Assembly: GCA_023134135.1 (NCBI GenBank)
Contig: JAGLVB010000010.1
Coordinates: 1-35,711, forward strand
DNA length: 35,711 bases
Direction of reading: 5' to 3'
From: Candidatus Aenigmatarchaeota archaeon
Lineage (GTDB): Archaea; Aenigmatarchaeota; Aenigmatarchaeia; QMZS01
The notes under the pieces are model-generated. The model had not been told where the DNA came from. It saw nothing but the letters and a program-made list of their open reading frames with translations, and did not search any database. Position 1 is the first letter of the stretch, and every line of letters begins with the position of its first letter. The position numbers were made by a program, and so were the translations under genes. Shown piece by piece: positions 9,758 to 35,440 of the stretch.

Positions 9758-11116
9758 ATGATAGTAGCGCCAAAAGCTTTTAGACTAAATAATTTTGAAA
9801 ATATTGGCAAAGAAGGCGAAATTTATTCAAAAACAAAAATCTCTGTTGCATCAACCTTATTTAATTATAACCGAAAAGTTCCTTATTACACTGCGTTGAT
9901 AAAAATTGACGGAGAAATTATTTTTGGTCTGATTGACGATAAAGTTAAAATCGGCGACAAAGTTATTTCAAGACCCGGAAAACTCGGAAGAACCGAACAA
10001 GGTTTATATATTTACGGCGGACTTTGGAAATTAAAAAAAGAATTCAGCAAACCGCAAACCAAAAAATCAGAAACAAAAAGAAAACTTCCTGATGAGAAAA
10101 TTGGCATCTCTGGTTATGGAGTTTATGTTCCAAGATACCGATTGGAACTATCCAATCTTAATAATGTCTGGGGTCGCGAATTAAAAGGAATTAAAAGTTT
10201 TCCGGGAAAATTTGACGACCAAGGAAGTTATGCTTTGAACTGCGGTCTAAACGCTTTAAAACATTCTGGTGTGGAAGGAAATAAACTCAAATTTATAGAA
10301 GTCGGAAGTGAAAGCAAAGTATATGCTGTAAAACCCACAGCAAGTATCATGGCAGGTCTCCTAAAAACAGAAAATTGTTTTGCATCAGATGTTGAATTTG
10401 CGTGCAAAGCAGGAACGCAGGCGATGGTAAATACATTCAACTTCGTAAAAATAAATGGGGGTTCAGGACTTGCTATTGGAGCGGATTCTGCGCAGGGTGC
10501 TCCGAATGATGAACTTGAAATAACAGCCGGGGACGGGAGCGCAGGTTTTGTGATTGGAGACCAAAAACCTATTGCTTTGGTTGAAGGATACACAAGTTTT
10601 ACAACAGACACCACAGATTTCTGGAGAAATGACGGGGATAAATTCCCTAAACATGCGGGAAGATTTTCAGGCAATCCGGCTTATTATAAACATGTTGAAT
10701 CAGCCGCAAAAAACCTGATGAAAAAATTAAACCTTGAGCCAAAAGATTTTGACTATGTTGTTTTCCACCAGCCAAATGGAAAGTATCCGAGAATTGTTGG
10801 AAAAAGATTGGGGTTCACTCCGGAACAGGTTGAACCAGGAATTAATTTTGAATTTATCGGAAACACTTATTCCGCAAATTCCTTGCTGGGTCTTGCGCGT
10901 GTCCTTGACATTGCCGCGCCTTACCAGAGAATCTTAGTGGTCTCTTACGGTTCTGGAGCAGGAAGTGATGCAATATCATTCATAACCACTCCAGACATTG
11001 AAAACAAAAGAAATAGGATTGAAAGAAGCGTCAAAAGTTGGGTTGGAGAAGAAGACAAAGATAATTTGATTATTGAAGATTATTCGATTTATCTGAAAAA
11101 TAAAGGAATTATTTAA
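9758..11116 (+). CDS. Hydroxymethylglutaryl-CoA synthase with an N-terminal DUF35 OB domain
   Basis: A 452-residue fusion. Residues 1 to about 95 match the OB part of DUF35 (ISVASTLFNYN, YTALIKIDGEIIFGLID, KIGDKVISRP), without the Cys4 zinc ribbon that usually precedes it. A Lys-rich linker (about 96-112) leads to the HMG-CoA synthase domain (113-452). That domain has E185 (EVGSESKVY), nucleophile C216 (FACKAGTQA) and H337 (VFHQPNGKYP). It condenses acetoacetyl-CoA with acetyl-CoA to HMG-CoA. In methanogens the DUF35 protein is a separate chain bridging thiolase and synthase; here the bridge is covalently attached to the synthase. Translation is coupled to thiolase. HMG-CoA reductase is not in the window. 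Confidence 0.9.
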   Translation: MIVAPKAFRLNNFENIGKEGEIYSKTKISVASTLFNYNRKVPYYTALIKIDGEIIFGLIDDKVKIGDKVISRPGKLGRTEQGLYIYGGLWKLKKEFSKPQTKKSETKRKLPDEKIGISGYGVYVPRYRLELSNLNNVWGRELKGIKSFPGKFDDQGSYALNCGLNALKHSGVEGNKLKFIEVGSESKVYAVKPTASIMAGLLKTENCFASDVEFACKAGTQAMVNTFNFVKINGGSGLAIGADSAQGAPNDELEITAGDGSAGFVIGDQKPIALVEGYTSFTTDTTDFWRNDGDKFPKHAGRFSGNPAYYKHVESAAKNLMKKLNLEPKDFDYVVFHQPNGKYPRIVGKRLGFTPEQVEPGINFEFIGNTYSANSLLGLARVLDIAAPYQRILVVSYGSGAGSDAISFITTPDIENKRNRIERSVKSWVGEEDKDNLIIEDYSIYLKNKGII

Positions 11117-11168
11117 TTGAAAAATTCAGAGAAAACATAAAAAAAATACAATGAGTAACCTGTTATCC

Positions 11169-12497
11169 TTAATGTAGATAACTTAATATTAACGTTATCA
11201 AAATTGAAGCTCTCGTTCCAAATTTAACAATTTGTGGTAAGATATCCATCCAAAATTTAGTTTTTTCAAAAGTATCTGTCAATTTTAAATACATATCCAG
11301 CCACTTCCCAAATACAGTTTTTTCATCATCTATTAATTTATTGGTGTCTATTAACTTCTGAAAAACCTTTGCGATTTTGTCAGGATTGCTCTCTGAATAA
11401 TTTAATAATTTCTTTAAAAGCTTGTTAGTTTCCAGAATATTTTTTTCAATTAATTTACTCCTTTCATTCGTTTCTGTTGTATTCTTATCTATCCTTGACA
11501 CTCTTTCGAGAAGTTTACTAAAGTCCTTTCTTTCTTTAGTTAAAAATGAATAGTTAGTTGCTTTTAAAAGAGGACCCTCTTGCGTTTTTCTTAATATATT
11601 CTGTGAAGTGTATATATCTCCCAAGGGAGAAGATACCAACCTAGTTTCACCTTCAAGATAATCGTTTCTTTTTAACTCTTTTATAAGCAGTGTTGGATTT
11701 TTTAAACCTTTTTTAAAAGGAATGTTTGATAGATTTCCATCACTGAAATCAAATCCCCTTTCAGATAAATTAGAAAACATTTTCTTGACATTTAATTCTT
11801 GAAAAATTTTTCGGGTTTCTACAGTTTTAAATGCACCATAAACTGGAATGTTGTCTATTGATAAATTCAAAAAATTTGAAAGCCCTATAACTTCTGAAAT
11901 TTGCAATAACTTTTTTTTGTTGCTATTTGGATCTAATCTTATACCATCGAGTATAATTTTAGAATTATCTAAATTCAATCGTCCGATACCTAATGATATG
12001 GAAACAGCAATATTCTTTTCTTCCCACTTTTTAAACCACTCATGTCCTTTAACACCATAGACATTGCACAACGTGTTGAAACCAACTCCTATTATTGGCT
12101 TAGACGAAAGTGGTTGTATGTCTGCAATTTGAGCAAAATTACTTTCAGTATAAGCTTTTATATTTATCAATCGTTTATTATCTATAGCTAAATGGAAAGA
12201 TGAATCGGGTTGAATGCCAGAAACTGTTGGCATCTTTCCTGCGTATATCTTAAATCCCAATGCTCTAAAAACGTTATCAAAGAATATTGGGTAATAATCA
12301 GGATCAACAGTGGAATCTAATTTTGATTCTTGTTTTAAATTATCGATGAATTTATCTTTTAAACTTGAGGCAGTTTCAATTCCCTTTGTATTAATAGTCT
12401 TAAAGTAATTATTTCTTAGGCTTTTCTGTCTGCCTCTTAATCTTCTTCTCTCTATTTTATCTTTCTCCCACTTTTGTTCTTTTGTTAGTTTTGTCAT
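11169..12497 (-). CDS. Orphan protein with basic N-terminus, coiled coil and C-terminal membrane helix
   Basis: A 442-residue protein I do not recognise. The first 35 residues are very basic (RRRLRGRQKSLRNNY). Residues about 60-200 look like an alpha/beta domain; the segment GIQPDSSFHLAI, then LINIKAYTES, loosely recalls a PD-(D/E)xK nuclease core, but the acidic residue of the ExK part is Asn. Residues about 330-390 form a coiled coil (NERSKLIEKNILETNKLL). The chain ends in a hydrophobic segment (ASILITLILSYL) that could anchor it. It stands alone between the mevalonate genes and the export operon, with a 210-bp gap upstream. Its lack of family resemblance suggests a lineage-specific or acquired gene. 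Confidence 0.65.
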   Translation of the reverse strand: MTKLTKEQKWEKDKIERRRLRGRQKSLRNNYFKTINTKGIETASSLKDKFIDNLKQESKLDSTVDPDYYPIFFDNVFRALGFKIYAGKMPTVSGIQPDSSFHLAIDNKRLINIKAYTESNFAQIADIQPLSSKPIIGVGFNTLCNVYGVKGHEWFKKWEEKNIAVSISLGIGRLNLDNSKIILDGIRLDPNSNKKKLLQISEVIGLSNFLNLSIDNIPVYGAFKTVETRKIFQELNVKKMFSNLSERGFDFSDGNLSNIPFKKGLKNPTLLIKELKRNDYLEGETRLVSSPLGDIYTSQNILRKTQEGPLLKATNYSFLTKERKDFSKLLERVSRIDKNTTETNERSKLIEKNILETNKLLKKLLNYSESNPDKIAKVFQKLIDTNKLIDDEKTVFGKWLDMYLKLTDTFEKTKFWMDILPQIVKFGTRASILITLILSYLH

Positions 12498-17448: not shown

Positions 17449-17522
17449 CAGATATAGAAGATTCAAACAAATTATTTCTTATTGATTTAATCTTTTGAAT
17501 GATTGGTTTTAAACAATTCTTT

Positions 17523-17897
17523 TTATTTCCTTAATTTTAAACTTTTTAACTTACTTCTTAGATTTATATCTTCCTGTTCATAATCCTGCATTATCTTGTT
17601 ATATATCTTATCGCCTATTTTTCTGCTATAATAACGCTTCTCCGCCTCTTTCTTGCCAAGCTCTATTAAATTTAGCCTTACTTTTAGTTCTTCTTTAGTT
17701 TCACCCTGAGTTAATTTTGTCCTTGAAATATATGATATATAATACAACATAGCCGCCATATCAATTGTCATAAGGAGGAAAATTATGTTATATGATGTAT
17801 TTGGAAACTGAGAAAACAAAGAAGCAATAATAAATATTGTAAGAATTAAAACAGAAATCATAATCCCCCAGATAAAATCCTCAGAAACCCTCTTCAT
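17523..17897 (-). CDS. Small two-helix membrane protein, paralog 1
   Basis: A 124-residue protein of unknown function with two N-terminal membrane helices (about 8-30 and 35-57) and a charged cytoplasmic helical tail. The tail carries KEELKVRLNLIELGKKEAEKR and ends QDYEQEDINLRSKLK. It is clearly paralogous to the protein at 18406-18798: same layout, nearly the same tail, and 38 identical DNA bases (17551-17588 and 18434-18471). The two copies flank the uL24 gene in the same orientation, a sign of a recent local duplication. No known family is recognised. Confidence 0.7.
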   Translation of the reverse strand: MKRVSEDFIWGIMISVLILTIFIIASLFSQFPNTSYNIIFLLMTIDMAAMLYYISYISRTKLTQGETKEELKVRLNLIELGKKEAEKRYYSRKIGDKIYNKIMQDYEQEDINLRSKLKSLKLRK

Positions 17898-18389: not shown

Positions 18390-18405
18390 AGAATTAATCA
18401 AAAAT

Positions 18406-18798
18406 TCATTTCTTTGACTTCAGATTTTTTAATTTACTTCTTAGATTTATATCTTCCTGTTCATAATCCTGAAATATCTTGTTATATATCTTTTCGCTTA
18501 TTTTCCTATTATAATATCTCTTCTTCGCTTCCTTTTTTCCAATTTCTATTAGCTTTAATCTTACTTTTAATTCTTCTTTTATATCTTTATTGCCTAATTT
18601 TACTTTTGAAATATATATAACATAATAGATCATAGCAACCAAATCAATTATCATGAACAAAAAGATTATATTATAAATACCTTTTGGAATTTGAGAAACT
18701 ACGGATAAAATGAGAAATAGAAATAAAATGATAAAAATGGTAATTATCAAAACTGAGATTATGGTTATCCATATAAAATCATCATTTATAGGCTTCAT
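18406..18798 (-). CDS. Small two-helix membrane protein, paralog 2
   Basis: A 130-residue paralog of 17523-17897. It has two membrane helices (about 9-37, longer than in copy 1, and 42-62) and the same charged tail (KEELKVRLKLIEIGKKEAKKR, ending QDYEQEDINLRSKLK). DNA similarity is highest at the 3' end and weaker in the membrane part, so the membrane helices have diverged faster than the tail. The gene ends 16 bases from the end of uL24 and converges with it. It diverges from the membrane gene at 18828. Function unknown. Confidence 0.7.
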   Translation of the reverse strand: MKPINDDFIWITIISVLIITIFIILFLFLILSVVSQIPKGIYNIIFLFMIIDLVAMIYYVIYISKVKLGNKDIKEELKVRLKLIEIGKKEAKKRYYNRKISEKIYNKIFQDYEQEDINLRSKLKNLKSKK

Positions 18799-26744: not shown

Positions 26745-28106
26745 CTAATTGACTCTATATATAAATATTTCCTGATTACAATCCCCTTCTATTTTTTTGA
26801 CTAAAGATAACCTTTCATGGACGTCCAATAGATTTTTATTATATTCCATCCCAACAAGGGAATTATAAGCAAAATATTGCGGGTTATATATATTTATCAT
26901 ATTTGTGATATTCTTATCCCAAGTGCTTGAAACAGAAGTATTAAGATAATAACCCAACCAAGGCCAGTAATTGCTAATTATGACCTGAGGTTTTTCTTCA
27001 AGAGAATTAAAATATTGAACTGAATTTAAAATACTGCTATTGGAATCGCAATTATTTTCTAAATTTATATTGATAAGACCAAAGAATAAAAAAACACTGC
27101 CTGATAAAATAAGGACTAATGAGAGAATTTTAAAATTAAATTTCTTTAAAACCCGTCTTTCACTCAGCCAAAGCAAACCAGAATAACTGATTAAATACAG
27201 GAAGGGTAAGAAAACAATATAATATCTGGCTAATTTCATATTTACAAAAAACAGATAATAAACCAAAGAGATAACTACATAAGAAACAATTAAATATTCT
27301 TTGTGTTTAGTCAAAAAAATTAATCCAAAGGGCAGGAAAAAAATTAGCAACCCGAGCGTTAAAAATAAGTTGTTTAATTGCAATGTTGCTGGTTGATTAA
27401 TTGTATAATCCGCAACTATTTTGTACTGTTCCTTGAAATCCCAAATAATGTCATCATAGGTTATATAATTATAACCTACCCAGGGCAATAAAGCCAATAG
27501 AACAAATGAAGTAAACAAGATAAATCCTTTATAATCTTTTTTTAGGACAAATTCAATAAATACCGCCAAAGCAAACAAAGCCACAGTAAACCTGGATAAA
27601 AAAGCCAATGCAAAAAAAGCGCCTGAAATGGAAATAAACGCAAATTTTCCGGATTCTCTGTATTTAAGAAAACTCAAAAAAGACAATAATAAAAACATAA
27701 GCGCCGGGACATCTGTATAAACCCTAAAACCCCAAAGAATAAATTGCGATGAAATGGAAAATAAAAAGGTTATTAGAAGGGAATGGTTTATAGAAAAAAA
27801 TTCCCTTGAAATTAGATAAAAAACAAACACGGTTAACAAACTCATTAAAATAACAACAAACCTGGCTGCAAAAATACTTTCTCCGGTAAAATACCAAACA
27901 AAAGCAATTATATATTCTAAAAAAGGGTATCTGAAATCTTCTACAAAATTACTCCCTCCCAGATGATTTCTTGCATTTCCAAGATAAGCGCATTCATCCC
28001 ATAGAAGAACTGGGTTTAAATAGTTAAATGACAAAAAAACTACTAACAGAAAAATCATTAAAGAAGACAGTAAATATAATTCCTTTCTGGTTTGTATCAG
28101 CTTCAT
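26745..28106 (-). CDS. Glycosyltransferase family 39-like membrane protein
   Basis: A 453-residue polytopic enzyme of the PMT/ArnT type, which transfers sugars from polyprenyl-phosphate donors. About ten or more membrane helices are visible. The first outer loop carries the catalytic Asp-Glu pair (D37, E38 in LLWDECAYLGNARNH), the hallmark of family 39. RYPFLEYIIAFVWYFTGES resembles the family's loop near helix 2, and the C-terminal soluble part is short. It converges with the thioredoxin-like gene (1 base apart) and diverges from the dolichyl-phosphate-sugar synthase-like gene, whose product could provide its donor. It probably decorates surface proteins or lipids. Confidence 0.82.
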   Translation of the reverse strand: MKLIQTRKELYLLSSLMIFLLVVFLSFNYLNPVLLWDECAYLGNARNHLGGSNFVEDFRYPFLEYIIAFVWYFTGESIFAARFVVILMSLLTVFVFYLISREFFSINHSLLITFLFSISSQFILWGFRVYTDVPALMFLLLSFLSFLKYRESGKFAFISISGAFFALAFLSRFTVALFALAVFIEFVLKKDYKGFILFTSFVLLALLPWVGYNYITYDDIIWDFKEQYKIVADYTINQPATLQLNNLFLTLGLLIFFLPFGLIFLTKHKEYLIVSYVVISLVYYLFFVNMKLARYYIVFLPFLYLISYSGLLWLSERRVLKKFNFKILSLVLILSGSVFLFFGLININLENNCDSNSSILNSVQYFNSLEEKPQVIISNYWPWLGYYLNTSVSSTWDKNITNMINIYNPQYFAYNSLVGMEYNKNLLDVHERLSLVKKIEGDCNQEIFIYRVN

Positions 28107-28160
28107 AAAAAACCATATAGAAAATTAAGTTATATTCTAAAACAATCAAAAGAATCTATT

Positions 28161-28856
28161 ATGAAGTTTACGCTAATAATTCCTACTTACAATGAAGGAA
28201 AAATTATTGAAAAATCAATTTTAAAACTGGAAAATTTTCTTGAAAAAAACAAAATAAATGCTGAAGTAATTATTTCTGATGGAGGTAGCCTAGATAATAC
28301 CCTGAAAAAATCAAAAACACTAAAAAAAAGATATGCCTCTCTGGAAATAATTGAAAGAAATAATCGAACTGGAAAAGGCAAGAGTATTGAAGAAGCAATA
28401 AAAAAATCAAAATCGAATTTTATCGTGTTTATGGATGCGGATTTATCTGTTAACTTGGATAATCTGCCAAAAATAATCAATTATCTAAAACAGGATTATG
28501 ATATTGCAATTGGATCAAGATTTGATAAAAACAGTGAAGTAAAAAGAAAATTTACAAGAAAAGTTATTTCGTCTGTTTATTCTTGTATGATTCAGGGTTT
28601 ATTTGGATTAAAAATAAAAGATTATCAATGTGGATTTAAAGGATTTAATCGCAAAAAAATAATGCCTCTTTTGGATAAAATTGAAAATAAAGGTTTTTTC
28701 TGGGATACTGAATTAATAATCAAGGCTAATGCGAAAGGATTAAAAATTAAAGAATTTGGGGTGCAGTGGGAAGAAACCAGAAACTCAAGTATAAATATTC
28801 TTGCCACAAGCCTGAGTTTCCTAAAATCCATCATATGGTTAAGATTAAGGATTTGA
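28161..28856 (+). CDS. Dolichyl-phosphate mannosyltransferase-like GT2 enzyme
   Basis: A 231-residue soluble glycosyltransferase of the DPM1/Alg5 type. It has FTLIIPTYNEG at the N-terminus, SDGGSLDNT (D40), FMDADLS with metal motif DAD (92-94), IAIGSRFD, YQCGFKGFNR and WDTELIIKA. Such enzymes move a sugar from a nucleotide donor to dolichyl phosphate on the cytoplasmic side. I start at the ATG at 28161 rather than 28092, since the family begins right at this strand and a TATA-like box lies at 28125-28136. The membrane gene at 28859 follows after 2 bases. Together they match the two halves of Haloferax AglD. Confidence 0.87.
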   Translation: MKFTLIIPTYNEGKIIEKSILKLENFLEKNKINAEVIISDGGSLDNTLKKSKTLKKRYASLEIIERNNRTGKGKSIEEAIKKSKSNFIVFMDADLSVNLDNLPKIINYLKQDYDIAIGSRFDKNSEVKRKFTRKVISSVYSCMIQGLFGLKIKDYQCGFKGFNRKKIMPLLDKIENKGFFWDTELIIKANAKGLKIKEFGVQWEETRNSSINILATSLSFLKSIIWLRLRI

Positions 28857-28858
28857 AG

Positions 28859-29791
28859 ATGAAATATTCTAAATTAATTGGATTGTTTGGTATTGGATTA
28901 TTTATCTATCTGATATCTTTTATAAACCTTGAATTACTCGTGGATTCTTTTAAAAATTTGGATATTATTTATTTATTAATTTCATTTTCATTTATAATAT
29001 CTGGAGTTCTGATAAAATCATTAAAATGGCGTCTAATAATCAACAAAAATGACAGACTATCAATGAAAACTACAATTATCGCATGGATTTCCGGTTTTGG
29101 TGTTGGATTAATAACCCCCGCCAAATTAGGTGAACTTGTTAGAGCAAAATTCCTGAAATCAAAACCAGGAATATCCATACTTACTGTTTTGGTTGACAGG
29201 TTTAATGATATTCTTGTTCTTTTTCTTATTGGGATTTTCGCAGTGTTTGTACTATTCTCAAAGAAGTCCGCACTATTTAACTTAAGTTACTTGTTCATTT
29301 TGTTTTTTGTTTTCTTCATCATTGGGGTCTTTATTTTAAAAAGTGAAAAAACAGTTAAAAAAATAGGAAGACCTTTTTATAAATTTTTGGTTCCGGAAAA
29401 ATTCAAGAACTTTGCAGGAGAAAATATTAATTTATTTTACAAAAACTTTAAAAAAATGAATAAAAATAAAATTTTTGTTAATTTTCTGTTGGCAATTTTT
29501 GCCTGGTTTATTTGTTTTGCCCAGTATTGGTTTTTAGCCTGCGCATTTGGATTAGATATATCCTATTTTCTTATTTGTTTAATTACACCAATCCTGATTC
29601 TTGTTCAGTTAATTCCGATCTCCGTTTCAGGAATTGGCACAAGAGAAGCAGCAGCTGTTTTAATTCTGTCAAATTTTGGAATATCTCCTGAACTTGCAAT
29701 TGCCTTCTCACTTGGAATCTTAATTGAAGATTTCATTCTTGGGGGTACTGGGTTAATTATTTTGTTCTTCTCAACTAAAGAACTAAATTAA
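28859..29791 (+). CDS. UPF0104 / AglD-type integral membrane protein
   Basis: A 310-residue protein with about eight membrane helices. It has the UPF0104 (lysylphosphatidylglycerol synthase membrane region) motifs: SLKWRLII near 50, GFGVGLITPAKLGELVRAKFL split over about 82-102, VDRFNDILVL near 122, and the C-terminal PISVSGIGTREAAAV near 250-265. In Haloferax AglD this region is fused behind a GT2 domain and is needed for adding the last mannose of the S-layer glycan; here the two parts are separate, adjacent genes. Flippase-like activity has been proposed for the family. The ATG at 28859 follows the GT2 stop by 2 bases, with a weak AAGGA site before it. Confidence 0.85.
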   Translation: MKYSKLIGLFGIGLFIYLISFINLELLVDSFKNLDIIYLLISFSFIISGVLIKSLKWRLIINKNDRLSMKTTIIAWISGFGVGLITPAKLGELVRAKFLKSKPGISILTVLVDRFNDILVLFLIGIFAVFVLFSKKSALFNLSYLFILFFVFFIIGVFILKSEKTVKKIGRPFYKFLVPEKFKNFAGENINLFYKNFKKMNKNKIFVNFLLAIFAWFICFAQYWFLACAFGLDISYFLICLITPILILVQLIPISVSGIGTREAAAVLILSNFGISPELAIAFSLGILIEDFILGGTGLIILFFSTKELN

Positions 29792-29856
29792 AAAAATAAA
29801 ATTTATAGAAATAAAAAAGATTAAAAAATCTTTTTGGATTTAATTGACCTTACCGG
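29788..29856. repeat. R0: third, diverged copy of the S-layer terminator repeat
   Basis: This stretch aligns with the first 80-90 bases of repeats R1 and R2: the AAAATTTATAGAAAT block, the A-rich run, the GATT/AATC terminator hairpin, GGATT and ACCTTAC. It has several substitutions and about a 10-base deletion. The S-layer coding tail present in R1 and R2 is not recognisable here. It lies directly downstream of the HEPN gene at 29883. Confidence 0.7.
29814..29835. terminator. AT-rich bidirectional terminator hairpin (R0)
   Basis: AAAAAGATT and AATCTTTTT pair across an AAAA loop, with T runs on both strands. It sits between the convergent genes ending at 29791 and 29883 and can stop transcription from both sides. 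Confidence 0.6.
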
Positions 29857-29882: not shown

Positions 29883-30440
29883 TTACAGTTTCTTAACTTC
29901 TTCTATTATCTGTTCTATCAGATTTTCGTCTACTTCTTCCGAAACAAGTTTTATTTTTGTTACAAATTGTCTTGCATAGTCCATTATTAGTTCGCTTTCT
30001 CTATAACTTGTAAATATTCCATATTGCGCTTTTTCCCTTGTCTGTTTTACTTTCCAGAAAAAATTCAGGTATTTCTCACTTATATTTAATTGCTCTATTT
30101 TGTCTTTTTTATATTTGAGTTCATCAAATTTTTTGAGAAGTAAAAAAAGTTTATCTTTAAAAAAGTATTCTAATACAGCAACTGTCGCTGCATGCTCTTT
30201 ACTTTCTAATCCTAATCTCATAATGAGAGAAGTTGCGGCATGATACATGGCATAATAAGCGGTTATTATAACCCAATCGGTGTGTTTTAATTTACTTAAA
30301 TCAGACATAACAATTAAATTGTGGTCTGCTTTATCCATATGCGCTTTAGCAAGAGAAATATTTGGTTTTGTTATTCTCAATCCCCTCACGCCTTTCTTTT
30401 CTCTTTCCAAAGCTTTTCTTATAATATCCTGAACTTTCAT
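29883..30440 (-). CDS. HEPN-domain protein, partner of MNT (module 1)
   Basis: A 185-residue helical HEPN-family protein, probably the toxin (RNase-like) of a HEPN/MNT toxin-antitoxin pair. The long helix pair is typical: AYYAMYHAATSLIMRLGLES followed by KEHAATVAVL. In the place of the catalytic Rx4-6H motif I read R135-EKAQ-Y140, so the canonical histidine is absent, as in UPF0332-type members; cutting activity is therefore uncertain. Its start overlaps the MNT gene by 4 bases (ATG inside the upstream stop), so translation is coupled. It is homologous to the HEPN protein at 31306-31776: same WV-(I/A)-x-T-x-YY block, same R-x4-Y. Confidence 0.8.
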   Translation of the reverse strand: MKVQDIIRKALEREKKGVRGLRITKPNISLAKAHMDKADHNLIVMSDLSKLKHTDWVIITAYYAMYHAATSLIMRLGLESKEHAATVAVLEYFFKDKLFLLLKKFDELKYKKDKIEQLNISEKYLNFFWKVKQTREKAQYGIFTSYRESELIMDYARQFVTKIKLVSEEVDENLIEQIIEEVKKL

Positions 30441-31021
30441 TTTTGATACATAATATCCACAAACTTTTTGGTTCCTGTAAAAATAATATGGTTTTCTTTT
30501 ACCTCTTTAATTAATTCACCGTCTTTCTGTTTTAAAAATTCATTTTTTGTTAGTTGAATTGCAGAAAGTTCTTTTCCATACAAAGAATAAATTTCCTTTA
30601 TTTCTTTTTCCAAGTTTATTTTTCTCTCTGTTAAAATAAATAAATCTATGTCGCTGTCTTTCTTTGCGATTCCTTTTGCATAAGAGCCAAAAATAACACC
30701 AAAAATAACTTTATTTCTTATTTTCTCAAAAAAACCAGATAGAATTAGTTTTAGTTCTTTGTTTTTCACAAAAAAATGTTCTCTTTCTTCTATTTCCGAT
30801 AAAGTTAATAAAACACTTGTTTTTTCATTTTTAAAGTTTAGCGAGCATAGAATCGCTTTCCCTATTTTATTTTCTAAAATCACCTGTTCTTTAATAAGTT
30901 CATGCACTTTTTTATTTATAAAAGAATAGGCTTTATTAGTTCCTCTGGAAATTTCATTTATTGTATATTCTCTATTAAAATTTCTTGCCAGGAACAATAT
31001 TATGTTTTGTTTTGTTTTCAT
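30437..31021 (-). CDS. Winged-helix plus MNT nucleotidyltransferase antitoxin (module 1)
   Basis: A 194-residue protein with an N-terminal winged helix (about 5-62; NREYTINEISRGTNKAYSFI) and a minimal nucleotidyltransferase domain (about 85-190). The domain shows G112-S113 (GVIFGSYAKG) and the metal pair D124, D126 (DSDIDLFIL). MNT proteins paired with HEPN partners act as antitoxins; in MntA/HepT systems they add AMP to a HEPN tyrosine. The DNA-binding domain suggests autoregulation, and a GATAATATTATC palindrome with repeated ATTATCTCTTT lies right before the start (31022-31053). It overlaps the HEPN gene by 4 bases. Confidence 0.82.
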   Translation of the reverse strand: MKTKQNIILFLARNFNREYTINEISRGTNKAYSFINKKVHELIKEQVILENKIGKAILCSLNFKNEKTSVLLTLSEIEEREHFFVKNKELKLILSGFFEKIRNKVIFGVIFGSYAKGIAKKDSDIDLFILTERKINLEKEIKEIYSLYGKELSAIQLTKNEFLKQKDGELIKEVKENHIIFTGTKKFVDIMYQK

Positions 31022-31053
31022 ATTATCTCTTTATGTGATAATATTATCTCTTT
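31022..31053. promoter_or_regulatory. Probable autoregulatory operator of MNT module 1
   Basis: ATTATCTCTTT occurs twice (31022-31032, 31043-31053), and GATAATATTATC (31037-31048) is a perfect palindrome between them. The block lies between the TATA-like stretch (about 31056-31070 on the minus strand) and the ATG at 31019-31021, the right place for repression by the gene's own winged-helix product. Confidence 0.5.
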
Positions 31054-31145
31054 TTAAGATATATATAACCTTTATTAGTTGAATTTGTCAAATAGAAGTA
31101 AAATTAATTGTTAAAAATATAAAATTTATAGAAATTAAAAAAAAT

Positions 31146-31169
31146 AAAAAAGATTAAAAAATCTTTTTT
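31146..31169. terminator. AT-rich terminator hairpin (R1)
   Basis: AAAAAAGATT and AATCTTTTTT pair across AAAA. By position it ends the MNT-HEPN module 2 transcript, although it is a copy of the S-layer terminator. Confidence 0.6.
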
Positions 31170-31195
31170 TGGATTAGATGTACCTTACTTAGTAA

Positions 31196-31295
31196 TTACT
31201 CGAGAGCAGTTACTTCGAAAGGAGTTGCAGTTCCAGATACTTTTACGCCGGTTCCTGTTAAAGCATGTGTATCATACTGTTGTAATACGCTACAA
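31196..31295 (-). pseudogene. S-layer gene 3' fragment
   Basis: This copy of the last 32 codons and stop of the S-layer gene (ends TPFEVTALE) has no start of its own and no 5' part. It is intact at base level, so the duplication is recent or kept alike by gene conversion. It would be transcribed as the 3' tail of the HEPN mRNA. Confidence 0.9.
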
Positions 31296-31305
31296 TTACT
31301 CTCAC

Positions 31306-31776
31306 TCATTCCAAAATCGTCTTCAAAGAAGCTCTTATAATCTGTACTTTACTCTCCGTTAAACCATCTATTAACTCTTTTATTTCCAAAATAAAATTTC
31401 TTAATTTTTTCAAATCTGTTGATATTGGTAAATTTTTCAAATAATATTGATTTTCTATCCTTAACTTCTTATCATCTTCCAGCATTGCGCTTACATTTTT
31501 TCTTATAAATCCGTGTTCTTCCAAATATCTTGCAAGTTCAATTGTGCAAGAATGAATCTCGGTTTTTACGCCAATTCTCATTAAGAACGCATAAAATGTA
31601 AAATATTCAACATAATATTTTGTTGTTGCCACCCACATTTTGGAATCAGTTTTTATTTTAGCCAACACCCTCAAACTCTCTTCCGCACTATTTAAATATT
31701 CTATTGCAAGATTTTCAGAGGGTTCTACTAATTTGATTCCTTTTTTCTGTTCCAGGCACCATTCCAATTTTTTCAT
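31306..31776 (-). CDS. HEPN-domain protein, partner of MNT (module 2)
   Basis: A 156-residue helical HEPN-family protein related to 29883-30440. The shared block is MWVATTKYYVEYFTFYAFLM, then RIGVKTEIHSCTIELARYL, where module 1 has RLGLESKEHAATVAVL. The family motif position reads R106-IENQ-Y111, again an R-x4-Y with Gln before Tyr and no Rx4-6H histidine. It lacks about 20 residues at each end relative to module 1. The start overlaps the MNT gene by 4 bases. The stop codon lies 10 bases before repeat R1, so its mRNA runs into the S-layer tail fragment and terminator. Confidence 0.78.
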   Translation of the reverse strand: MKKLEWCLEQKKGIKLVEPSENLAIEYLNSAEESLRVLAKIKTDSKMWVATTKYYVEYFTFYAFLMRIGVKTEIHSCTIELARYLEEHGFIRKNVSAMLEDDKKLRIENQYYLKNLPISTDLKKLRNFILEIKELIDGLTESKVQIIRASLKTILE

Positions 31777-32339
31777 TTTATAAGAAAAGTTACAAATAAA
31801 TCAGAATTATTTATCATAATATGTTTCTTTGCGATTTCCTGTATAAATGCCGGGGTTAAATTATCCATATTTGTTGGCACACTATGAATCTCAATCCCGT
31901 AAGTTAATGAAAAACTTTTTATTGTTTCTTTTAATTCTTTGTTATATTTTCCAACAATTAATAAATCCAAATCATTGCCTGTTAATTTCTCCGCAAAAGA
32001 TCCAAAAACCAGAAATGAGCTTTCAGAAAAAAATTTGGAAAATAGTTCGTGCAATCTTTTAAGAAGGGGGCTTTTAGCCATTAAATTATAAGTCTTTATC
32101 TTTTCAGAAATTGATAAATAATCATAAATGAAGGGATTCTTAAAATTTATTGAATAAATGGCATGTTTCTCCTTTTTTTCTGTTTTTAAGATTTTCTCAT
32201 TTGTAAGTTGTTTTAGATATTTTGATATCGTTTGGTGAGGTATTTTTAATTCTTTTTCAAAATCCGCCAATAATAGATTTCTTTTGTAATTTAAAAGATA
32301 AGGTAACAAAACATACCATATAGTAATCTTTCTTACCAT
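31773..32339 (-). CDS. Winged-helix plus MNT nucleotidyltransferase antitoxin (module 2)
   Basis: A 188-residue protein with an N-terminal winged helix (about 8-65; ADFEKELKIPHQTISKYLKQL) and an MNT domain with G113-S114 (LVFGSFAEKL) and D123, D125 (NDLDLLIVG). It is the predicted antitoxin and autoregulator of module 2, with the same gene order and 4-base overlap as module 1. Sequence identity with module 1 is low by eye, so the two modules are not a recent duplication of each other. The start lies 32 bases from repeat R2, so its promoter is squeezed between the S-layer terminator and the ATG. Confidence 0.8.
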   Translation of the reverse strand: MVRKITIWYVLLPYLLNYKRNLLLADFEKELKIPHQTISKYLKQLTNEKILKTEKKEKHAIYSINFKNPFIYDYLSISEKIKTYNLMAKSPLLKRLHELFSKFFSESSFLVFGSFAEKLTGNDLDLLIVGKYNKELKETIKSFSLTYGIEIHSVPTNMDNLTPAFIQEIAKKHIMINNSDLFVTFLIK

Positions 32340-32371
32340 AATTATTAATTTATAATATTAAATAGATATAA

Positions 32372-32556
32372 TTAAAAATATAAAATTTATAGAAATTAAA
32401 AAAAATAAAAAAGATTAAAAAATCTTTTTTTGGATTAGATGTACCTTACTTGGTAATTACTCGAGAGCAGTTACTTCGAAAGGAGTTGCAGTTCCAGATA
32501 CTTTTACGCCGGTTCCTGTTAAAGCATGTGTATCATACTGTTGTAATACGCTACAA
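32372..32556. repeat. R2: 185-bp direct repeat at the functional S-layer 3' end
   Basis: This is the partner of R1 (31111-31295). It includes the real S-layer stop codon (32457-32459), the last 32 codons and the terminator. Its inner border with the cassette is at 32371/32372, and its outer border is inside S-layer codon sequence at 32556/32557. Confidence 0.95.
32407..32430. terminator. S-layer gene terminator hairpin (R2)
   Basis: Ten-base arms AAAAAAGATT and AATCTTTTTT with an AAAA loop lie about 27 bases after the S-layer stop codon. The AT-only arms with T runs suit archaeal termination. Confidence 0.6.
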
Positions 32557-35105
32557 GCTGCGCCTGTGTTTGCGGCTTCCCAACCTGCGACTACGTATGC
32601 TACTTTACCGCCGCCAAAAGCGTTTTCCACGATTTTAACCATTGCTGCGTTCTCAGGCACTGTTGAATCTACTCCGTAAGTTGGATAACTTAAGCCAAGT
32701 ACGGCTGCTGTCAACCTGTTAACGGCAGGACCACCAATTATTATCATGTTTTTGTTGCCCTTTGCTGATTCAACTTCTGCGTCTGTGTCAAGTCTTGCAA
32801 TGTTGTCTTTTATTGGAACTACCTGTTCATATGTTACTGCTCCTTCTCCACCTGCTGTTGATACTTCTGAAGTAATTTCACTTACATAAACGTCTGCATA
32901 CATCTGTTCTTTTGGTATTGTTATTGTAAGCACATCCTGATCTCCATCCGTATTTAACAAGATATAGGTACCAAAGGTATCTACATAACCTGTTAAGTCC
33001 GTGTCATCAAAGCTCTGTGATACCGCCTCAGCATCTGAGAACCATGGCGCTTCAACCTGCATTTTGTCACTAACACCATCGTCGTCTGTTCCAATTATAA
33101 CTGCTTCTTTTGCATCACTGTTTGTTGCGTCTTCTTCCTCAACAATCAATAGACCTGCGTGTGTTTCTGCTGATGCAGTACCATTTTGATTAGCATCAAC
33201 AGCTATGTCTAATTCATTGTTCGTTGAACCATTAAATGTGTAATACACTTGTCCAACCAGAGCGGTTACAACACCAGCTGCAGAATCATATTCTACTGTA
33301 GCTATAGTTACATTATTTGTTGCTGCTACATAAGCTACTGAACCTGTTGGTAAAACTATAGTAGTATCTGCGGTTAGACCTGTTACAGTCACATCTTCTG
33401 TAAATGCTACTCTTTGGTCATATCCATGATACAATTCAATAAATGGATATACTGCTACACTTCCGGTTGTTTTATCTGCAATTGTTAGTGTGTCGGCTGA
33501 ATCATTGCATGTTACTGTAAATGTTTTTCCCTTGTATGTGAAGTCTTGTGCTGTTGGATCTGTATCTTTGTCATCCCAGTCTATAATATAGTCTCCAGTA
33601 AAGACATCTTTTATTGTTAAGTCAAGTACATCGCAGTCTGCATTGTTTACTGTCTTTATTTGTCCCATTGTAACATACTCGCCATTGGAGTTCAAAATCA
33701 GATATGATTCATCATCATCTATATTTGCGCCTTCCCACATAGCGACTACTTCTCCTTTTTCATCAGCCACAATCATATCATCTGTATCATCACCGTGGTC
33801 GTATGCAAATGGAAGTGTTGCGGTCTCGCCTCTTTCATCAGTGAGTTTCACGCCAAGTGCTGCTGAAGATTCTTTCAAAACTTCAATCTTTCTTCTTGAT
33901 GTATCTGAATCTGATTCGCTTTCTGACAAGTCAGGTCCGTTTTTAACATCTGCAAAAGTCACTTTGACTGTTCCAAATACCGGATCAACAAAACTGTCAC
34001 CTATAGCTAAATGATCCCTTTCATTGTCATCTGCTGTTACACGGATTTTTATCTGTGTAAGAACTCCAAGAGTTGCATCTGGCGTTAAATCAACAAGTGT
34101 GCCTTCTATACCTGTTTTTGAAGAACCTACTTTTACTTCATCACCATCCTTTAACCAGATTTCATCTGCGCCTAAACTTATCACAGCATCACCAAGTTTG
34201 CTCTCCAAACCATAGTAATTAACTGTATCAGCATATATCTCAAGACCTGCTATTGTTTTTGTTGAACCTTCTGCAACGGTTTTTGTTTCTGTTACTCCAT
34301 CATAAGTGATTTTTATTGACGCTTTTTCAGCACTTGTTACACCGGTTAGGGTTATTTCATAATCCTTTTCATTAAATGTTCCTGTCTTTACCTCCCCAGT
34401 ATCTTCAAATGCAACATCCAGCGCTCCGCCCAATAACTGCAGTTCATCATTATCTGTGCTTGAACCAACTGTATAATCTTTTCCAAACAGAGTAATCTTT
34501 TCTCCGACTGAATCAGATGCATTTATAGGCGTTGCCTCATCAAAGTCCACAACTAAATCATATATTGGTGTGCCTGTTGCAGTTCCCAAATCTATTATCA
34601 ATACAGGGTCATCTAAATCTGCACCGGAATCATCAAATATGAACTCGGCATGGTCTGTTGCTCCGATTTCGATTTTCTGTGAGTAATCATATTCTGTTCC
34701 GCCATCATCCTCAAAAGTGCCCTCTGCCAATATTGTTGGTAAATCATCTACAGTCATTTGTGTTACGCCACCATCAGCAAGTTCATCAAGCAAGTATATT
34801 CTATCTGCTCCGCTTGCTAAATCAGCGCTTTCTCCGGTCATAGTTGTTGTTGCAGCTCCTGCGGTTGTAACTGTTTTTGTTTCTCCTGGTTCTGCGCCTA
34901 ATCTAACAGCCACATTTATTGCACCTACAACATCTGCAGGGCTTGCGTCAGCTCCAACAACCATTAACATGTCTGTTGTGCCGTCTGTTATGAAAGGCGC
35001 TGGATATTCACTTAAGTCTGCTGCCATGGCTGGTGCCAACAAAGTAGCTCCTGTCATAACGGCTCCTATTAAACCTGCTCCTATTTTACTCAATATTTTT
35101 TGCAT
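32457..35105 (-). CDS. S-layer surface protein
   Basis: An 882-residue secreted protein that should form the cell's surface lattice. A signal peptide (GLIGAVMTGATLLAPAMAA, about 10-29) is followed by the S-layer N-terminal domain seen in methanococcal-type proteins (LMVVGADASPADVVGAINVA near 47-66). The matching C-terminal domain has NMIIIGGPAVNRLTAAVLG and GKVAYVVAGWEA. The middle is acidic and beta-rich with Ser/Thr/Asp runs. Five N-x-S/T sequons are visible (for example INASD, CNDSA, NNVTI, FNGST, QNGTA), fitting N-glycosylation by the glycan genes upstream. A strong GGTGAT ribosome site lies five bases before the ATG. The 3' end is duplicated at 31196-31295. Confidence 0.88.
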   Translation of the reverse strand: MQKILSKIGAGLIGAVMTGATLLAPAMAADLSEYPAPFITDGTTDMLMVVGADASPADVVGAINVAVRLGAEPGETKTVTTAGAATTTMTGESADLASGADRIYLLDELADGGVTQMTVDDLPTILAEGTFEDDGGTEYDYSQKIEIGATDHAEFIFDDSGADLDDPVLIIDLGTATGTPIYDLVVDFDEATPINASDSVGEKITLFGKDYTVGSSTDNDELQLLGGALDVAFEDTGEVKTGTFNEKDYEITLTGVTSAEKASIKITYDGVTETKTVAEGSTKTIAGLEIYADTVNYYGLESKLGDAVISLGADEIWLKDGDEVKVGSSKTGIEGTLVDLTPDATLGVLTQIKIRVTADDNERDHLAIGDSFVDPVFGTVKVTFADVKNGPDLSESESDSDTSRRKIEVLKESSAALGVKLTDERGETATLPFAYDHGDDTDDMIVADEKGEVVAMWEGANIDDDESYLILNSNGEYVTMGQIKTVNNADCDVLDLTIKDVFTGDYIIDWDDKDTDPTAQDFTYKGKTFTVTCNDSADTLTIADKTTGSVAVYPFIELYHGYDQRVAFTEDVTVTGLTADTTIVLPTGSVAYVAATNNVTIATVEYDSAAGVVTALVGQVYYTFNGSTNNELDIAVDANQNGTASAETHAGLLIVEEEDATNSDAKEAVIIGTDDDGVSDKMQVEAPWFSDAEAVSQSFDDTDLTGYVDTFGTYILLNTDGDQDVLTITIPKEQMYADVYVSEITSEVSTAGGEGAVTYEQVVPIKDNIARLDTDAEVESAKGNKNMIIIGGPAVNRLTAAVLGLSYPTYGVDSTVPENAAMVKIVENAFGGGKVAYVVAGWEAANTGAACSVLQQYDTHALTGTGVKVSGTATPFEVTALE

Positions 35106-35110
35106 TTTAT

Positions 35111-35117
35111 ATCACCT
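35111..35117 (-). promoter_or_regulatory. Shine-Dalgarno site AGGTGAT of the S-layer gene
   Basis: AGGTGAT lies five bases before the ATG at 35105. It is the strongest ribosome site in the window and fixes the start of a gene expected to be very highly expressed. Confidence 0.75.
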
Positions 35118-35138
35118 TTTTATACATAGAGAATCTCC

Positions 35139-35212
35139 CCAAACCTTAAGAAGGTTGGTTCCTGGATTCGGTGTGTCACTATAAAAATATCTGTAAATAA
35201 AAGTATATATGG
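35139..35212 (-). promoter_or_regulatory. S-layer promoter region and leader hairpin
   Basis: Two TATA-like boxes lie at about 35198-35212 and 35178-35190 on the minus strand, so the leader would be about 50-80 nt. In the leader AACCTT and AAGGTT (35142-35147 and 35151-35156) pair across a three-base loop, extended by CC/GG (35139-35140 with 35157-35158) after one bulged base. Such a 5' hairpin can stabilise an abundant mRNA. Which box is used cannot be told. Confidence 0.45.
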
Positions 35213-35440
35213 TCACTAAGAAACAGTTCCACACAAAATATGGTGATTGAAAATATTTAATTTTACTTTAAAGGAACTAAAATTAGTTAAGTTAATTGTT
35301 TCTGAAGTAAAATTATTTAATTTCTCGGGATTTAAACCAATATTTTTAAGTTATATTTTTATTTTTAATTCACAGAGCATTTCAGGGTTTTTCAACCGCC
35401 AAATTCAGGTCTGTTTAGGGTATACTGATTGAATTAATAT
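35213..35440. other. AT-rich region without visible gene
   Basis: Low-complexity AT-rich sequence upstream of the S-layer promoter. A 61-codon frame at 35247-35432 is rich in Phe, Ile and Lys and looks like a chance opening. I see no RNA gene. Confidence 0.35.

What the first reader, a model, noticed from the sequence alone, without database searches (positions are those of the whole stretch)
31111..32556. Toxin-antitoxin cassette inserted at the S-layer gene 3' end with an exact 185-bp duplication
Seen: 31111-31295 and 32372-32556 match at 184 of 185 positions without gaps. Each holds the last 32 S-layer codons, the stop and the terminator. Between them are only an MNT antitoxin and a HEPN partner gene (1,076 bp). 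Known: integrative elements that target the 3' end of a gene carry a copy of that end and so leave the gene intact. Inference: the MNT-HEPN pair moved in as a 1,261-bp unit using the S-layer 3' end as its site, although it has no integrase of its own. This would be an undescribed way for a toxin-antitoxin pair to tie itself to an essential surface gene.
Basis: partly seen in the sequence, partly recalled or inferred. Interest (0 to 1): 0.85.

Follow-up and report, generated by a model that had tools for sequence, protein, structure and literature searches.

The report
Scarred toxin-antitoxin array behind S-layer gene
Behind the surface-coat gene of a tiny uncultured archaeon lie two unrelated toxin-antitoxin pairs, each followed by a left-over copy of that gene's tail end; this looks like a record of repeated surface-gene exchange by ordinary recombination, not of a self-mobile toxin-antitoxin element.

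Summary
The repeat is real: 31111-31295 and 32372-32556 match at 184/185, flanking one MNT-HEPN pair. A second, distantly related MNT-HEPN pair (29883-31021) follows, and a third, older copy of the S-layer terminator (29788-29853, 78%) closes it. So the layout is S-layer -> A -> MNT2-HEPN2 -> A' -> MNT1-HEPN1 -> C <- flippase.

The "cassette moved in with the duplication" reading fails for MNT2-HEPN2. A congener carries a decayed orthologue between its S-layer gene and the same flippase, diverged as much as the genome average, with no S-layer fragment beside it. The pair is therefore much older here than the 99.5%-identical repeat. No tyrosine recombinase is found in the 73%-complete genome, and A' and C have different inner ends.

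The S-layer gene is a mosaic: its ends are about 88-94% identical to congeners at DNA level, while about 680 residues in the middle are unalignable to them. Best explanation: homology-anchored replacement of S-layer alleles with linked TA pairs, joined illegitimately on one side, leaving the old gene's tail as a scar. Vibrio T6SS immunity arrays are thought to form this way. It is a new variant of a known kind. The direction of the last event and the reads remain untested.

The parts
32457..35105 (-). S-layer gene (882 aa, S_layer_C); mosaic: ends like congeners, middle of another type
   Evidence: ORF; PF05124 E 7.8e-18; mosaic profile
32360..32818 (-). Conserved 3' anchor of the S-layer locus (last ~120 codons plus terminator), 93.8% identical to G001 and G007
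34881..35409 (-). Conserved 5' anchor (about 300 bp upstream plus first ~75 codons), 88.3-88.7% identical to G001/G007, i.e. at genome background
32372..32556 (-). Copy A: last 32 S-layer codons, stop and terminator of the intact gene
31773..32339 (-). MNT2 antitoxin (188 aa, winged-helix plus minimal nucleotidyltransferase, motif GSF...DLD)
   Evidence: (weak nucleotidyltransferase hits below Pfam cut-offs)
31306..31776 (-). HEPN2 toxin candidate (156 aa)
   Evidence: no Pfam match of its own
31296..31305 (-). Ten-base join between HEPN2 stop and the S-layer fragment; the proposed illegitimate junction
   Evidence: sequence
31111..31295 (-). Copy A': relic of an S-layer 3' end, 184/185 identical to A
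30437..31021 (-). MNT1 antitoxin (194 aa, Polbeta/NTP_transf_2)
29883..30440 (-). HEPN1 toxin candidate (185 aa, PF05168)
29788..29853 (-). Copy C: older, degenerate copy of the S-layer terminator only (78%), abutting the flippase stop
28766..29791 (+). Convergent flippase-like membrane protein (LPG_synthase_TM); same neighbour in G005
28092..28856 (+). Family 2 glycosyltransferase; directly faces the S-layer terminator in G001/G007 (empty site)

Best explanation
The region is an array of TA pairs separated by scars of earlier S-layer genes. Alleles of the S-layer locus, each with whatever lies just downstream (here an MNT-HEPN pair), are exchanged between close relatives by recombination. Homology at the conserved S-layer ends anchors one side of the incoming DNA, and the other side joins without homology (homology-facilitated illegitimate recombination). 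Each such event leaves the tail of the displaced S-layer gene (A', and earlier C) and its pair behind, downstream of the newcomer. SHOWN: the three copies and their order; the mosaic S-layer gene; MNT2-HEPN2 being older at the locus than the repeat; the differing inner ends of the two scars. INFERRED: that the junction after HEPN2 (31296-31305) is an illegitimate join, and that S-layer/MNT2-HEPN2 was the newcomer. The mirror version, in which an S-layer stump plus MNT1-HEPN1 entered from the flippase side, fits almost as well. The MNT-HEPN pairs themselves probably work as type VII TA modules (NMP transfer silencing the HEPN toxin); that is inference from family.
For: Third, older and more distal scar C (78% against 99.5% for A'), in the order sequential displacement predicts. 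The scars' inner ends differ: A' starts 32 codons before the stop, C starts at about the stop and cannot hold the coding part. Their outer ends coincide with the end of the conserved terminator. The two pairs are only 22-27% identical, so they were acquired separately, not by tandem duplication. MNT2-HEPN2 and the flippase are syntenic in G005 at background divergence (73% and 72% against 70-76%). The S-layer gene is a mosaic: aa 1-80 are 85-92% and aa 761-882 are 88-95% identical to G007/G001, the middle 0-30%, yet about 50% identical to G010 of another genus. DNA of the 3' anchor is 93.8% identical to congeners, above the mostly 82-90% of neighbouring genes. Empty site in G001/G007. No PF00589 recombinase in the genome. 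Precedent for the mechanism: PMC5361080.
Against: Only one genome shows it: none of 58 other S-layer loci checked in class relatives has an S-layer 3' relic. The donor allele (S-layer plus MNT1-HEPN1) has not been seen in any relative. A and A' are 99.5% identical, so donor and recipient must have been very close, although the S-layer middle differs strongly from known congeners. Microhomology at the junction cannot be judged without the donor. Gene conversion could keep A' looking young.
Confidence: 0.6

Rival explanations
1. One reading: MNT2-HEPN2 is a 1,261-bp unit that integrated site-specifically at the S-layer 3' end, recreating that end, with an integrase supplied in trans.
For: Near-exact 185-bp direct repeat bracketing exactly one pair, intact S-layer gene; empty site in G001/G007; a second pair bracketed similarly by A' and C.
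Against: Orthologous pair in G005 at the same place without a repeat, at background divergence; no tyrosine recombinase found in the genome (73% complete); A' and C have different inner ends; no relatives of the pair found in IMG/VR or PLSDB.
Confidence: 0.08
2. A circular DNA carrying the S-layer 3' end and MNT2-HEPN2 entered by a single homologous crossover (Campbell-type insertion), with no recombinase.
For: Gives the exact repeat; the S-layer 3' end is strongly conserved between the window, G001 and G007, a good homology target.
Against: Needs a circle that had captured the S-layer end; the pair already belongs to this locus in the genus; does not by itself explain C or the mosaic S-layer gene.
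Confidence: 0.14
3. Local tandem duplication of S-layer 3' end plus TA pair, followed by divergence or replacement of one pair.
For: Direct tandem layout with similar unit lengths (1,261 and 1,323 bp between copies).
Against: The pairs are 22-27% identical and have different nearest relatives in other families, while the flanking repeat is 99.5% identical; needs a later precise replacement of one pair.
Confidence: 0.1
4. Assembly artefact: two strains with different pairs behind the S-layer gene were joined through the shared 185 bp.
For: Metagenome-type draft assembly in 31 contigs; contigs of several relatives end just behind their S-layer genes; no reads available.
Against: The HEPN2/S-layer-fragment join at 31296-31305 lies between unique sequences and cannot be made by collapsing the repeat; exact shared runs are only 80 and 104 bp, divided by a SNP.
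Confidence: 0.06

Closest known systems
T6SS orphan immunity-gene arrays of Vibrio cholerae (Kirchberger et al. 2017, PMC5361080)
   Same: One intact variable gene followed by a string of accessory genes from earlier alleles, including a shifted-back 3' end of a displaced gene; explained there by homology-facilitated illegitimate recombination and sequential displacement.
   Different: Archaeon; the displaced gene is an S-layer gene, not an effector; the retained genes are TA pairs, not cognate immunity genes; a single genome so far.
Recombinational switching of S-layer loci (C. difficile S-layer cassettes; S-layer island of Haloquadratum walsbyi; both as described in PMC4033161)
   Same: S-layer gene content replaced by homologous recombination in conserved flanks, between close relatives.
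   Different: Those are described as replacements; here tail-end scars and TA pairs are left behind.
Integrative elements targeting gene 3' ends
   Same: Intact target gene and direct repeat of its 3' end.
   Different: No integrase detected, variable inner boundaries, pair older than the repeat.
HEPN-MNT (type VII) toxin-antitoxin modules (PMC7641770, PMC11586414)
   Same: MNT with GSx..DxD motif next to an overlapping HEPN-like gene.
   Different: N-terminal winged helix on the MNT; HEPN shows R-x3-Q-Y in place of the Rx4-6H type motif.

Membership tests
Sequential-displacement arrays (Vibrio T6SS type) | Intact variable gene followed by remnants of 3' ends of earlier alleles, older ones more distal | tested here: met
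   A (intact), A' (99.5%), C (78%) in that order
Sequential-displacement arrays (Vibrio T6SS type) | Accessory genes of separate origin, not duplicates | tested here: met
   22-27% identity between pairs, different nearest relatives
Sequential-displacement arrays (Vibrio T6SS type) | Intermediate arrays present in sister strains | tested here: inconclusive
   G005 has the MNT2-HEPN2 form, G001/G007 the empty form; no MNT1-only form seen
Sequential-displacement arrays (Vibrio T6SS type) | Homologous recombination in the displaced gene, variable breakpoints | tested here: met
   Mosaic S-layer gene; inner ends of A' and C differ
Integrative element at a gene 3' end | Site-specific recombinase encoded or available in the genome | tested here: not met
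   No PF00589 match in 0.99 Mb (73% complete), 14/14 controls positive; serine recombinases not tested
Integrative element at a gene 3' end | Same att boundaries at each insertion | tested here: not met
   A' begins 32 codons before the stop, C at about the stop
Integrative element at a gene 3' end | Circular excised form | not testable with these tools
   No reads
HEPN-MNT (type VII) TA module | Adjacent MNT and HEPN genes, MNT with GSx(n)DxD | tested here: met
HEPN-MNT (type VII) TA module | HEPN RNase motif Rx4-6H | tested here: not met
   Family consensus reads K..RI..QYy
HEPN-MNT (type VII) TA module | Toxicity neutralised by NMP transfer | not testable with these tools
   Needs bench work

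The most novel reading that the evidence does not exclude
TA pairs in these archaea ride with S-layer alleles: each S-layer variant carries its own MNT-HEPN pair, and exchange leaves the old pair behind, so the array behind the S-layer gene is a readable history of surface changes, possibly because losing a displaced pair is lethal.
Probability: 0.25. Interest if true: 0.75.

Novelty: new variant of a known kind. Interest (0 to 1): 0.5.

Why it matters
It is a likely example, in a DPANN archaeon, of displacement scars at a surface-protein locus, linking S-layer variation (often a receptor or recognition surface) to the build-up of toxin-antitoxin genes. If the pattern recurs in sister strains, scars could be used to read the order in which a lineage changed its coat. 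It also warns that an exact gene-end repeat around a TA pair is not by itself proof of a mobile element.

Tried and rejected
S-layer 3' relics in 58 other S-layer loci of the class: none by blastn with coding sequence, none by tblastn except the window; a 73-bp 92% repeat behind the G063 S-layer gene begins 76 nt past the stop and was not pursued. Relatives of the pairs in IMG/VR, PLSDB and an exact A pattern in IMG/VR: nothing. Genome-contig scan with the S-layer protein returned only G007. A general enrichment of MNT genes behind S-layer genes: outside the window there are 6 profile hits within 5 kb (G005 twice, G047, G054, G059, G075) against roughly 1.5 expected from PF18765 density (my own sum of the table, about 5.7 per Mb); without G005 it is 4, not significant, so it is only suggestive. 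Tandem duplication and the integrase model were considered and ranked low for the reasons given.

Full report
OBSERVATION. Against the whole 985,619-base assembly the 185-mer finds only these and one further place, 29788-29853 (C), 78% over the terminator part. C is far above chance: score 77, against at most 54 in 2,000 shuffles and at most 34 elsewhere. The mismatch leaves exact shared runs of only 80 and 104 bp, and the join between HEPN2 and the S-layer fragment lies between unique sequences, so a pure assembly collapse is unlikely. No reads were available.

ANATOMY. Read on the minus strand: S-layer gene (32457-35105, PF05124), A, MNT2 (31773-32339), HEPN2 (31306-31776), ten bases, A', MNT1 (30437-31021), HEPN1 (29883-30440), C, and the stop of a convergent flippase-like gene (28766-29791, PF03706). 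MNT1 matches Polbeta/NTP_transf_2 and HEPN1 matches PF05168. MNT2 has only sub-threshold nucleotidyltransferase matches, and HEPN2 has no Pfam match but aligns to HEPN1. Both MNTs carry GS...D.D and both HEPNs carry a conserved R-x3-Q-Y in place of the Rx4-6H motif. The two pairs are only 22-27% identical and have different nearest relatives, HEPN2 up to 58% and HEPN1 up to 57%, in other families of the class. They are separate acquisitions.

RELATIVES. In G007 and G001 the S-layer terminator directly faces the glycosyltransferase that lies beyond the flippase in the window: no pairs, no flippase, no repeat. In G005, a more distant congener, the order is S-layer, a deacetylase-like gene, a decayed MNT2-HEPN2, a small antitoxin-like gene, then the flippase. 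Window and G005 match at 73% over 1,001 bp of MNT2-HEPN2 and 72% over the flippase, equal to the 70-76% background between these genomes. So MNT2-HEPN2 and the flippase were neighbours of the S-layer gene before the two species split, while A and A' are 99.5% identical. The pair is older at the locus than the repeat, and it did not arrive with it from outside the genus. The remaining loophole is gene conversion keeping A' young.

THE S-LAYER GENE IS A MOSAIC. Against G007/G001 its first 80 residues are 85-92% and its last ~120 residues 88-95% identical, while the ~680 residues between score 0-30% and are effectively unalignable. The same middle is about 50% identical to G010 of another genus. 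At DNA level the 3' anchor (32360-32818) is 93.8% identical to both congeners and the 5' anchor (34881-35409) 88.3-88.7%, against mostly 82-90% for neighbouring genes. G001 and G007 are alike throughout most of the gene. A block of the S-layer gene has therefore been exchanged between conserved ends, and the 185-bp repeat lies inside the 3' anchor.

MECHANISM. The pattern fits alleles of the S-layer locus with linked downstream pairs replacing one another, one side anchored by homology, the other joined illegitimately, leaving the displaced gene's tail behind. It predicts (a) older scars further out and more decayed, as seen (A' 99.5%, C 78%); (b) outer scar ends at the end of the conserved terminator, as seen for both; (c) inner scar ends that vary, as seen (A' at codon -32, C at about the stop codon, with only about 13-30 bases between the HEPN1 stop and C); (d) accessory genes of unrelated origin, as seen. 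Kirchberger et al. proposed the same process for T6SS immunity arrays in Vibrio cholerae, including a shifted-back 3' end of a displaced effector (PMC5361080), and S-layer exchange by homologous recombination is described for C. difficile and the archaeon Haloquadratum (PMC4033161). Which side was the newcomer last is open: S-layer/MNT2-HEPN2 from the left, or an S-layer stump with MNT1-HEPN1 from the right. MNT1-HEPN1 has no close relative in the genus.

AGAINST A MOBILE ELEMENT. No tyrosine recombinase in the assembled genome, with 14 of 14 controls positive (the genome is 73% complete, and serine recombinases were not tested). No relatives of the pairs in IMG/VR or PLSDB. No common inner boundary. 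The idea that the pair ties itself to an essential gene is also weakened because the S-layer is dispensable in Sulfolobus islandicus (PMC6249222 abstract).

GENERALITY. None of 58 other S-layer loci has an S-layer 3' relic, so this is one case. MNT genes lie within 5 kb behind the S-layer gene in a few unrelated members (G059 at 177 bp, with its HEPN-like partner; G047, G075, G054), but the excess over chance is weak.

VERDICT. Observation confirmed and extended; the mobile-cassette interpretation is only partly supported. Best reading: displacement scars at an exchanging S-layer locus, a new variant of a known kind of array.

Noticed in passing
window 31022-31060 (minus strand, upstream of MNT1): Repeated AAAGAGATAATAT motif in a dyad (AAAGAGATAATATTATCACATAAAGAGATAATATG) just before the MNT1 start, possibly an autoregulatory operator for its winged-helix domain.
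   Followed up: no
window 17522-17696 and 18405-18579: 175-nt direct repeat, 83% identical, at the 3' ends of two minus-strand ORFs of unknown function (124 and 130 aa, no Pfam match) flanking the ribosomal protein uL24 gene.
   Followed up: partly
L094 (G005:C6), about 2.6-2.9 kb past the S-layer stop: In congener G005 the same S-layer/flippase interval also holds an antitoxin-like ORF (74 aa) with what reads like a truncated PIN-domain toxin beside it, so several TA types have landed there.
   Followed up: partly
L109 (G059:C22) 10922-11937: MNT plus a HEPN-like gene lie directly behind the S-layer gene (177 bp) in a member of another family, without any S-layer repeat.
   Followed up: partly
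G000 whole genome: No PF00589 tyrosine recombinase at all in the 73%-complete assembly, although archaea usually carry one (XerA); 14 Polbeta-type nucleotidyltransferases in 0.99 Mb.
   Followed up: partly
L145 (G063:C27), 76-148 and 6299-6372 nt past the S-layer stop: 73-bp repeat, 92% identical, downstream of the S-layer gene and again 6.2 kb further on.
   Followed up: no
S-layer loci G001, G007, G009, G042, G046, G070: Contigs end within about 0.15-1.2 kb behind the S-layer gene in several MAGs, suggesting strain variation or repeats there that break assembly.
   Followed up: no
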